Assembly: GCA_900314605.1 (NCBI GenBank)
Contig: OMVX01000014.1
Coordinates: 1-39,139 of the forward strand
Reading direction: 5' to 3'
Length of the DNA stretch: 39,139 nt
DNA from: an uncultured Methanobrevibacter sp.
Lineage (GTDB): Archaea; Methanobacteriota; Methanobacteria; Methanobacteriales; Methanobacteriaceae
Part shown: piece after piece, positions 6,918 through 10,127 of the stretch
Numbering within the stretch: position 1 is the first letter of the stretch
Layout: each line of letters starts with the position of its first letter
Position numbers and translations under genes: made by a program
The notes under the pieces: generated by a model
The model's database searches: none
The model's input: the letters and a program-made list of their open reading frames with translations, nothing else
Told to the model about the DNA's origin: nothing

Positions 6918-7850
6918 TTATTTATAAATCCTAACTGCTTCATCAGGATTATTATATAATCCTAAAGCAGCAAGTGCACCAATTTTTCCATGGTCCCCTG
7001 TAACAGAGATTAATTTTATACCTAATTCATCTGCAATATTCTGGCAAGTTCCAACATCCATCATTCCAGTTTTAGTTTGATGTGCATATTCTTTTAATTT
7101 ATTTGGTATAGTAATTCCTTCTAATATTGCAATAGATGTTTCATTAGATAAAGTATCTCTTTTTAAAAGTTCAATGATACGATTAATAAGTTTTTCTTTA
7201 TCTTCCTCTTTTACAGCAAATGTTAATGCAATAGATACACAATTTTGTGTTTTATGAGGGTTTTTAGGATATAATTGGCAAATAACATGATCTAAATATT
7301 CGAAGCCTTCACTTTTTAATTCTTCTCCAATATTATGAGCCATAGTCCAAGTTGCACCTTGGTCTTTTATATCTGTATCATCAATACCAATTACCACCTT
7401 TGAAAGTTTTTCACTTACAACTGTTGCTTTACCAATTTTGGAACCTCCACCTTCACTAATAAGTTCAATATATTTAACACCTTCACCCATACCTCTACAC
7501 ATTGCTGCTCCAACACCTGCACCTGCAAGTCCAGAGTGAGTTATTTTGACATTATCTTCCTCTACTACAATTTCTTCTATACCTGCAGCATTATAACTAG
7601 CTTGTAATTTAAGGGGGGATTTACCTATTTTGCAAATATAAACATGTTTATTTCCATCTCTATATGCCATATCTATTAAAGGACTAGAATGTTTATACTG
7701 ATTTAAAAGCCAATGAGAACCAGATATACAAGAATGATATTCTACTAACTCAACAGTATCATTATCCACCATAGTTATAATTTTTTTATAAGGTGCAATC
7801 CAAGGGTCATTATATCTTTCTTTTAAATCTTCAGGTTTTAAAATTTCCAT
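6918..7850 (-). CDS. Methanogenesis marker protein 11-like
   Basis: This 310-residue soluble protein resembles the methanogen-restricted family called methanogenesis marker protein 11. Its function is not established. Visible features are HSCISGSHWLLNQ near 39-51, a glycine-rich stretch (GLAGAGVGAAMCRGMGEG) near 107-124, and VVIGIDDTDIKDQGATW near 152-168. The GIDDTD motif is shared with TiaS, the tRNA-Ile2 agmatidine synthetase, so a related nucleotide-binding fold is likely. The length fits the marker family rather than the longer TiaS. It stands alone on the minus strand, with 260 bases of AT-rich DNA between it and ribH. The name is from recollection of the motif pattern, so an unrelated TiaS-like protein cannot be excluded. 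Confidence 0.65.
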   Translation of the reverse strand: MEILKPEDLKERYNDPWIAPYKKIITMVDNDTVELVEYHSCISGSHWLLNQYKHSSPLIDMAYRDGNKHVYICKIGKSPLKLQASYNAAGIEEIVVEEDNVKITHSGLAGAGVGAAMCRGMGEGVKYIELISEGGGSKIGKATVVSEKLSKVVIGIDDTDIKDQGATWTMAHNIGEELKSEGFEYLDHVICQLYPKNPHKTQNCVSIALTFAVKEEDKEKLINRIIELLKRDTLSNETSIAILEGITIPNKLKEYAHQTKTGMMDVGTCQNIADELGIKLISVTGDHGKIGALAALGLYNNPDEAVRIYK

Positions 7851-8110: not shown

Positions 8111-8530
8111 TTAACCTATTTCTTCCATTCTATCTAATATTTTAATAGCTGCTTCAACTGCTTTTTTACCCATGTCAATACGTTTATGAGCATCAAGTCT
8201 AGTCATACCAGGACCACTAATACCTAATGTTACAGGTTTATCATATTCTAAAGATAAATCAGTTATTTTACGTGCTGCATGTTGAGCTACAATCTGATCA
8301 TGGTCTGTTGCACCTTCAATTACAGAACCTAATGCTACAACAGCATCAACATCATCTCTTTCAAGTAATTTTTTAATAGGAAGGGCCATATCAAAGACAC
8401 CTGGAGCAATAAATACTTTTGTAATTTCACTACCTCTTGATTTAGCTTCTTCTTTAGCAAGACCTAACATCATTTGATTAATATCAAAGTTAAATTCTGC
8501 TACAACTGCAGCAATATTATATTTTCCCAT
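8111..8530 (-). CDS. ribH: 6,7-dimethyl-8-ribityllumazine synthase
   Basis: This 139-residue protein is lumazine synthase. It condenses 5-amino-6-ribitylaminouracil with 3,4-dihydroxy-2-butanone 4-phosphate, the penultimate step to riboflavin. In methanogens riboflavin also feeds coenzyme F420-related deazaflavin and FAD pools. Diagnostic parts are AAVVAEFNFDI at the start, IAPGVFDMALPIKKLL, VVALGSVIEGATDHDQIV (with the catalytic-region His) and PVTLGISGPGMTRLDAHKR. The length is typical of the archaeal family. The start is set by a strong GGAGGATTAAG immediately upstream on the minus strand. A 29-codon membrane-peptide gene lies 69 bases upstream and may share its transcript. Confidence 0.95.
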   Translation of the reverse strand: MGKYNIAAVVAEFNFDINQMMLGLAKEEAKSRGSEITKVFIAPGVFDMALPIKKLLERDDVDAVVALGSVIEGATDHDQIVAQHAARKITDLSLEYDKPVTLGISGPGMTRLDAHKRIDMGKKAVEAAIKILDRMEEIG

Positions 8531-8599
8531 CTTAATCCTCCAGAAGAGTAATTTCTTTATAATTATAAATAATTATTTTTAATTTATTAAAAAGAATGT

Positions 8600-8689
8600 T
8601 TATATAACGACAAATGTCACGAAATATGCTACACCACTTAAAACCATAATAAATATAACAAAAAGTGCTGCCCATTGAATTTTATCCAT
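8600..8689 (-). CDS. 29-residue single-pass membrane peptide
   Basis: On the minus strand an ATG at 8689 opens 29 codons ending in TAA at 8600-8602. The peptide starts MDKIQWAALFVIFIMVLSG and continues with another hydrophobic run ending FVVI. It is almost wholly one transmembrane helix with a short charged N-terminus. A strong GAGGT (plus-strand complement ACCTC at 8696-8700) lies six bases before the ATG, matching the spacing of other genes here. That makes chance occurrence unlikely. It sits 69 bases upstream of ribH in the same direction and could be co-transcribed. I do not know its function; a small accessory subunit of a membrane complex or a regulatory peptide are options. Confidence 0.65.
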   Translation of the reverse strand: MDKIQWAALFVIFIMVLSGVAYFVTFVVI

Positions 8690-8786
8690 TTTATTACCTC
8701 TCATTTTTATAAATCTTAATACAATTATTATTTAATATTTAATATTTATCTAATTTATGGTTTATTATTTAGATAATATAAATTAT

Positions 8787-10127
8787 TTAATAATTAATTT
8801 TATTTTTAATACCTATTTGATAATATGTGAATCCTAAATCTTGAAGTTTTTCTGGATTATATTGATTTCTTCCATCAAAGATTACTGGATTTTTAAGTAA
8901 TTCTTTAATTTCACTAAAGTCGGGTGTTCTAAATTCTTTCCACTCTGTTACAAGTACCATAGCATCTACATCTTTTAAGGCATCGTTTCTATTATCACAA
9001 TAAACAATATTTTTATTATCTTTTAAATATTTGTTTTTAGCTTCATCAATAGCTTTTGGATCATATGCTTGTATACGAGCTCCTCTTTTGGTAAGTTCAT
9101 TAATAAGTGTAATGGAACTTGCTTCTCGCATATCATCTGTATTAGGTTTAAAGGACAAACCCCAAAGACCAAATACAAGGCCATTTAAATCTTCTCCAAA
9201 ATGGTCTACTATTTTTCTCACTAAAGACAATTTTTGATTATAATTAACATCCTCAATAGCTTTTAAAAGTTTAGGATCTATACCATTTTCCTGAGCAATA
9301 CTTATTATTCCTTGAACATCTTTTGGGAAACAACTTCCCCCATATCCACATCCTGCATGTAAAAAATGACTACCAATACGTTTATCAGTTCCAATTCCAA
9401 GACGAATATCTTCAATATTTGCACCGGTTTTCTCACAGATATTTGCCATTTCATTCATAAATGAAATTCTAGATGCAAGCATAGCATTAGCTGCATATTT
9501 TGTAAGCTCAGCACTTCTAATATTCATAAAATAAATATTACGAGTTGTATCGGTAAATGGTTCATATAAATCTTCCATTACATGTCTACAGGATTCATCT
9601 TCAAAACCAAGAATAACTCTATCTGGTAATAAACAATCATTTACAGCAGATCCTTCTTTTAAAAATTCAGGATTGGAAATCATTTTAAAATCAAAAGATT
9701 CACCTCTTTTAGATAATTCTGCATTAATAATAGATTTTACCTCATCTGATGTTCCAACAGGAACAGTAGATTTAATAACAATAAAACAATCATGGTCCAT
9801 ATATTGACCAATTTCTTTTGCAACATTATATACATATGTTAAATTACAACTACCATCTTCATTCATTGGTGTTCCAACTGCAATAAAGTAAACATCTGAT
9901 CTTTCAAGTGAGTATTTTAAATCAGTAGTAAAGTATATATTACGTCTTTGCTGATTTTCAATAACTAAATCAGTAAGTTGAGGTTCGTAAATAGGAATTA
10001 TTCCCTTTTTAAGGTTATTTATAATATTTTCATTTACATCTACACAGTAAACATGATTTCCCATTTCGGCAAAACAAGTTCCTGTAACGAGTCCTACATA
10101 ACCGGTTCCTATAACTGTTAATTTCAT
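8787..10127 (-). CDS. ugd: UDP-glucose 6-dehydrogenase
   Basis: This 446-residue enzyme oxidises UDP-glucose twice with NAD+ to give UDP-glucuronate, a precursor of acidic surface polysaccharide. The N-terminal Rossmann domain begins KLTVIGTGYVGLVTGTCFAEMG. The middle carries FIVIKSTVPVGTSDEV, NPEFLKEGSAVND and the catalytic-cysteine motif GYGGSCFPKDV with Cys266. The C-terminal domain includes LWGLSFKPNTDDMREASS. Length and motifs fit the bacterial TuaD/Ugd type, making this the UDP-glucose enzyme rather than the ManNAc one encoded at 11517. RBS GAGGT precedes the ATG on the minus strand. It lies downstream of rfbD in the same direction, separated by 261 bases including a 30-bp tandem duplication, so it probably has its own promoter. 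Confidence 0.92.
   Translation of the reverse strand: MKLTVIGTGYVGLVTGTCFAEMGNHVYCVDVNENIINNLKKGIIPIYEPQLTDLVIENQQRRNIYFTTDLKYSLERSDVYFIAVGTPMNEDGSCNLTYVYNVAKEIGQYMDHDCFIVIKSTVPVGTSDEVKSIINAELSKRGESFDFKMISNPEFLKEGSAVNDCLLPDRVILGFEDESCRHVMEDLYEPFTDTTRNIYFMNIRSAELTKYAANAMLASRISFMNEMANICEKTGANIEDIRLGIGTDKRIGSHFLHAGCGYGGSCFPKDVQGIISIAQENGIDPKLLKAIEDVNYNQKLSLVRKIVDHFGEDLNGLVFGLWGLSFKPNTDDMREASSITLINELTKRGARIQAYDPKAIDEAKNKYLKDNKNIVYCDNRNDALKDVDAMVLVTEWKEFRTPDFSEIKELLKNPVIFDGRNQYNPEKLQDLGFTYYQIGIKNKINY

What the first reader, a model, noticed from the sequence alone, without database searches (positions are those of the whole stretch)
8600..8689. Overlooked 29-residue membrane peptide upstream of ribH
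The small frame has an excellent RBS at ideal spacing, a single strong hydrophobic helix and a stop codon. It is far too short for most gene finders. Its place upstream of ribH suggests a conserved small protein or leader.
Basis: partly seen in the sequence, partly recalled or inferred. Interest (0 to 1): 0.5.

Follow-up and report, generated by a model that had tools for sequence, protein, structure and literature searches.

The report
Conserved tiny membrane protein beside ribH
A 29-residue membrane peptide gene just upstream of the riboflavin gene ribH is a real gene kept across a whole class of methane-making archaea, though what it does there is not yet known.

Summary
On the minus strand, 8600-8689 encodes MDKIQWAALFVIFIMVLSGVAYFVTFVVI, with GAGAGGT six bases before its ATG, 69 nt upstream of ribH. 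It is a real, selected gene. A profile finds it in 141 of 151 class genomes; of the 10 others, 7 have no ribH in the assembly and 3 have ribH at a contig edge. In 128 of 128 loci fetched it is a 25-43 aa frame on ribH's strand, 2-781 nt upstream; 125 have a ribosome-binding site of at least 4 nt. Selection acts on the protein: pN/pS is 0.21, and identity between two sister species is 88% in the sORF against 48-51% in its flanks. Met and Ser of IM-x-x-S are invariant in 124 of 124 cores. Topology is N-in/C-out. A leader peptide is unlikely. Most likely it is a co-expressed membrane microprotein that acts in trans; its partner is unknown. Outside the class the motif appears mainly as the N-terminal anchor of longer archaeal proteins (17 of 240 genomes, against 1 of 395 for a reversed profile). 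No Pfam, NCBIfam, PHROG, PADLOC, PDB or Rfam family covers it.

The parts
8600..8689 (-). sORF: 29-aa single-span membrane microprotein MDKIQWAALFVIFIMVLSGVAYFVTFVVI, stop TAA at 8602-8600
   Evidence: homologues; selection
8690..8704 (-). Shine-Dalgarno GAGAGGT (8702-8696) plus 6-nt spacer; an alternative in-frame ATG at 8704 would give 34 aa, but lacks an SD
   Evidence: read; start choice (SD 5 nt for the 8689 start, 0 for the 8704 start)
8531..8599 (-). 69-nt spacer to ribH, not conserved (45 of 94 aligned columns identical to the sister species)
   Evidence: L001 vs L002; no Rfam match
8111..8530 (-). ribH, 6,7-dimethyl-8-ribityllumazine synthase, 139 aa; downstream partner in all 128 loci
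   Evidence: TIGR00114 E 9.4e-42
6918..7850 (-). methanogenesis marker protein 11 gene (310 aa), next gene downstream; same order in the relatives
   Evidence: TIGR03280 E 8.9e-121; same strand downstream in 124 of 128 loci; not seen within the stretch held in the other 4
8787..10127 (-). nucleotide-sugar (UDP-glucose type) dehydrogenase, upstream neighbour; lineage-specific, not a conserved partner
   Evidence: TIGR03026; upstream neighbour differs between lineages

Best explanation
The frame is a translated gene for a 25-43 residue, single-span membrane microprotein, found throughout the class Methanobacteria wherever the locus is assembled. It sits in a conserved block sORF-ribH-mm11. SHOWN: the open frame, its RBS, purifying selection on the amino acids, linkage to ribH, and lysine/arginine almost only on the N side. 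INFERRED from the positive-inside rule: N-terminus in the cytosol, one helix, C-terminus just outside. INFERRED, with less confidence: it works in trans as a small subunit, tether or regulator, packing its conserved IM-x-x-S-x-x-A segment against a membrane partner, or presenting its short basic N-tail to a cytosolic partner, and being made together with RibH. My estimates: translated microprotein 0.97; N-in/C-out 0.85; acts in trans as a protein rather than as a leader 0.8; direct functional tie to RibH or to riboflavin or marker-11 metabolism about 0.2.
For: Profile search: 141 of 151 class genomes at E <= 1.8e-6. Synteny: 128 of 128 fetched loci (of the 141 genomes) have it upstream of ribH on the same strand, gap 2-781 nt, median 25. 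Start: ATG in 127, TTG in 1; SD >= 4 nt in 125 of 128. Selection: pN/pS 0.206 over 59 independent pairs, codon-position changes 113/61/287. Identity L001 vs L002: sORF 88%, upstream 51%, spacer 48%, ribH 92%. M and S invariant in 124 of 124 cores (4 loci were dropped by the anchoring script, and all 4 also carry M-x-x-S). N-side K/R in 127 of 128, C-side in 5 of 128. The upstream gene changes between lineages (class-V aminotransferase, Iso_dh, glycosyltransferases, sugar dehydrogenase) while sORF-ribH stays.
Against: No expression, ribosome-profiling or mass-spectrometry data were available. A helix-face test on conservation was not significant at 100 degrees (p 0.23), so a partner-facing side is not demonstrated. 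No partner is identified. Tight operon spacing (gap <= 50 nt in 89 of 128) is also compatible with a cis role.
Confidence: 0.75

Rival explanations
1. cis-acting leader: translation of the sORF, not the peptide, regulates ribH (attenuation or translational coupling), and the peptide is discarded.
For: It always precedes ribH, with a gap <= 50 nt in 89 of 128 loci.
Against: Selection is on amino acids with free synonymous change. The spacer is unconserved and ranges from 2 to 781 nt; in L036 about 780 nt without an ORF of 70 or more codons separate it from ribH. No Rfam element. A hydrophobic membrane helix is an unlikely sensor of riboflavin (inference).
Confidence: 0.08
2. Membrane tether for RibH, or for marker protein 11: like Listeria Prli42, the basic cytosolic N-tail holds a large soluble assembly (RibH) at the membrane.
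For: Linkage to ribH in 128 of 128 loci while the upstream genes change. The N-side is basic in 127 of 128. Precedent: Prli42 tethers RsbR of the stressosome through its basic cytosolic tail (PMC6614362, passages).
Against: Operon conservation alone can explain the linkage. The N-tails differ in length and sequence between lineages. No interaction was tested. ribH outside the class has no such neighbour in the 9 genomes looked at.
Confidence: 0.15
3. Spurious ORF in AT-rich intergenic DNA, conserved by chance.
For: AT-rich intergenic DNA produces many short frames.
Against:: class-wide conservation, codon-position pattern, and higher identity than both flanks.
Confidence: 0.01

Closest known systems
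Prli42 (NCBIfam NF033880), stressosome-associated miniprotein of Listeria
   Same: A tiny single-span protein with a basic cytosolic N-tail (passages of PMC6614362). One homologue (L027) gave a sub-threshold profile match, E 0.19, 11.5 bits against a cut-off of 27.5.
   Different: Below the family cut-off; bacterial. No stressosome link was tested here.
Archaeal small membrane proteins found by Ribo-seq, e.g. sORF_05 of Methanosarcina mazei
   Same: An unannotated archaeal sORF giving a membrane-associated hydrophobic helix (PMC11456600, passages).
   Different: Another order, with homologues only in Methanosarcinaceae according to those passages; sequence not compared here.
MtrI of Methanosarcina mazei
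   Same: A small protein overlooked until found bound to a methanogen membrane complex (PMC12774963, passages).
   Different: 68 residues and a stand-alone gene, discussed there for Methanosarcinales; no sequence comparison made.
N-terminal signal-anchor segments of longer archaeal proteins (TSP3-repeat protein, ectodomain proteins of other lineages)
   Same: A similar basic-tail, A-L-F-I-x-x-I-M-V-x-S-x-x-A pattern; 17 of 240 genomes at E <= 0.01, against 1 of 395 with the reversed profile.
   Different: There most carry an ectodomain of about 80-450 residues; in Methanobacteria the anchor stands alone.

Membership tests
Prli42 (NF033880) | Score above the curated cut-off of the family model | tested here: not met
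   Only L027 matched, 11.5 bits vs cut-off 27.5; the window protein did not match
Prli42 (NF033880) | Single span with basic cytosolic N-tail | tested here: met
   K/R on the N side in 127 of 128, on the C side in 5 of 128; topology inferred
Prli42 (NF033880) | Binds the stressosome protein RsbR | not tested
   No search for stressosome genes was made
DUF7248 (PF23906) | Pfam gathering score | tested here: not met
   14.2 bits vs 27
Regulatory leader peptide | Selection on codons/RNA, not on protein; conserved leader RNA and spacing to the regulated gene | tested here: not met
   pN/pS 0.21; spacer 2-781 nt and unconserved; no Rfam match
Conserved membrane microprotein (general kind) | Short frame with RBS, one hydrophobic span, purifying selection across genera | tested here: met
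Conserved membrane microprotein (general kind) | Translated and membrane-located in the cell | not testable with these tools
   Needs Ribo-seq or mass spectrometry and fractionation

The most novel reading that the evidence does not exclude
The peptide is the free-standing form of a widespread archaeal 'IM-x-x-S' signal-anchor module that is recognised by a dedicated membrane partner. In Methanobacteria it has become a universal subunit or tether, co-made with RibH and marker protein 11, linking flavin synthesis to the membrane.
Probability: 0.12. Interest if true: 0.75.

Novelty: new member of a known kind. Interest (0 to 1): 0.5.

Why it matters
A gene of 25-43 codons kept by every class genome in which the ribH locus is assembled with enough upstream sequence is very probably important, yet none of the family libraries searched here covers it. 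Methanobacteria are the main methanogens of the gut and rumen (established knowledge), so an unrecognised universal membrane protein there is a concrete target for Ribo-seq, deletion and pull-down. The motif shared with N-terminal anchors of unrelated archaeal proteins suggests a recognisable membrane-anchor code in archaea that can be tested.

Tried and rejected
Chance ORF: rejected.

Leader peptide: disfavoured.

Extension or fusion of ribH: rejected, because an in-frame stop ends the frame and the gap to ribH is variable.

Known family: Pfam, NCBIfam, PADLOC and PHROGs gave nothing above cut-off. PDB sequences gave nothing at E <= 10.

Partner-facing helix side: tested by conservation periodicity and not significant at 100 degrees (p 0.23). 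The peak near 110 degrees is post hoc and not claimed.

Other-frame control of pN/pS: one frame gave no usable pair because of stops; the other gave a ratio of 2.6 over 40 pairs.

Exceptions sought: 10 of 151 class genomes lack the sORF by profile at E <= 1e-4. 7 of them have no ribH match either. In G020, G067 and G145 the contig ends 74, 137 and 0 nt upstream of the ribH match, so they are uninformative; for the 137-nt one (G067), gaps of 43-170 nt in its genus mean that it is not a clean negative.

Literature: searches listed nothing that I recognised, from titles and abstract starts, as describing this peptide. Only openly licensed PMC papers are searched, and only the listed papers were seen.

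Full report
OBSERVATION. The frame 8600-8689 on the minus strand reads MDKIQWAALFVIFIMVLSGVAYFVTFVVI and ends in TAA. GAGAGGT lies six bases before the ATG. A second in-frame ATG at 8704 would add five residues but has no RBS. ribH (TIGR00114) starts 69 nt further on, followed by methanogenesis marker protein 11 (TIGR03280), all on the same strand. The upstream neighbour is a nucleotide-sugar dehydrogenase (TIGR03026).

WHERE IT COMES FROM. The first search found 35 of 60 genomes with a match at E <= 10. A same-genus genome, G003, holds a 27,779-base contig, the same length as Methanobrevibacter sp. 87.7 contig4. Likewise G146's 20,632-base contig equals a Methanosphaera contig. So the window is most likely from a Methanobacteriaceae genome of the genus holding strain 87.7. 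From recall only, the contig lengths of G046, G048 and G022 look like M. thermautotrophicus, Methanothermus fervidus and M. smithii.

DISTRIBUTION. A profile of 26 homologues (A1) was run on all 151 held genomes of the phylum, which here are all of the class. At E <= 1e-4, 141 of 151 match (147 genomes with a hit of 395, 6 of them outside the class; the weakest in-class E is 1.8e-6). The 10 without a match were tested for ribH. Seven have none in the assembly, and three have it with only 74, 137 and 0 nt of contig upstream. No assembled and informative locus lacks the gene. A named-genome scan gave 57 loci, titled Methanobrevibacter or Methanosphaera, with one 'archaeon' MAG.

SYNTENY. I read the locus in 128 of the 141 genomes. 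In 128 of 128 the sORF is upstream of ribH on its strand, with a gap of 2-781 nt (median 25; 89 of 128 at 50 nt or less). Marker 11 follows in 124 of 128; in the other 4 it was not seen within the stretch held. The upstream gene differs between lineages: class-V aminotransferase (PF00266), isocitrate/isopropylmalate dehydrogenase (PF00180), family-2 glycosyltransferase (PF00535), a protein without a Pfam match, or the sugar dehydrogenase. The block that stays together is sORF-ribH-mm11.

SELECTION. Over 59 independent pairs pN/pS is 0.206, and changes at codon positions 1/2/3 are 113/61/287. The other-frame control gave 2.6 (40 pairs) in one frame and no usable pair in the other. Between the window and its closest sister (L002), identity is 88% in the sORF, 51% upstream, 48% in the spacer and 92% in ribH. 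Met and Ser of IM-x-x-S are invariant in 124 of 124 cores. Four loci were dropped by the anchoring script because it latched on to a second M-x-x-S near the C-terminus; they keep the motif.

PROTEIN. Lengths run from 25 to 43 residues (median 32), with 114 distinct sequences; starts are ATG in 127 and TTG in 1; SD is at least 4 nt in 125 of 128. Lysine or arginine lies on the N side in 127 and on the C side in 5. By the positive-inside rule this is N-in/C-out. A conservation-periodicity test for a partner face was not significant (p 0.23).

MECHANISM. The best reading is a membrane microprotein acting in trans, co-expressed with RibH and marker 11. A leader is disfavoured: selection is on amino acids, the spacer is variable and unconserved (in L036 about 780 nt with no ORF of 70 codons or more), and Rfam has no hit in the window or in five relatives. 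A tether for RibH, in the manner of Prli42 on the stressosome (PMC6614362, passages), is possible and untested.

OUTSIDE THE CLASS. In 240 searches of single genomes among the 244 other archaeal genomes, 17 match at E <= 0.01 (6, 5 and 6 of 80). The reversed profile matched 1 of 395. Read residue by residue, most are N-terminal anchors of longer proteins. Examples are a TSP3-repeat protein (PF18884) in several genomes of one family, and 450-residue ectodomain proteins. L211 (internal), L220 (a short frame cut by a stop) and probably L221 (signal-peptide-like) look unrelated. L214 is another stand-alone peptide, of 42 residues. None of the 9 ribH-bearing genomes outside the class that I looked at shows such a peptide in the 420 nt upstream (by eye). 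Whether these anchors are homologous or convergent is open.

NOVELTY. No family model or solved structure covers it. Paper searches listed nothing recognisable as this peptide; only listings and abstract starts were seen, and the library is partial. It is a new family of a known kind, conserved single-span microproteins. Its universality and invariant motif raise its interest; the unknown partner limits it.

Noticed in passing
L133, L135, L219: In three genomes a roughly 450-480 aa ectodomain protein with the IM-x-x-S-type N-terminal anchor lies next to genes that look like a proteasome beta subunit and an FKBP-type isomerase (labels by eye, not tested); no Pfam match for the two scanned.
   Followed up: partly
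L131, L132, L136, L209, L210: In one archaeal family (f5) a 120-146 aa anchored protein, with a TSP3 repeat in the two copies scanned by Pfam (L131, L136), lies beside a MinD/CooC-like ATPase (label by eye).
   Followed up: partly
L214:1478 downwards (-): A stand-alone 42-aa anchor peptide MAKKAKRARAQPRLNRKQLIGLGLIFIFILSTLAYAVIQAGL outside the class (genome G305), not near a recognisable ribH.
   Followed up: partly
L036:1897-2858: An unusually long spacer (about 780 nt, no ORF of 70 codons or more) between the sORF and ribH in genome G006.
   Followed up: no
window 6918-7850 (-): Methanogenesis marker protein 11 carries TiaS-like domains (PF22641, PF08489) and is co-located with ribH across the class; its function is open.
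   Followed up: no
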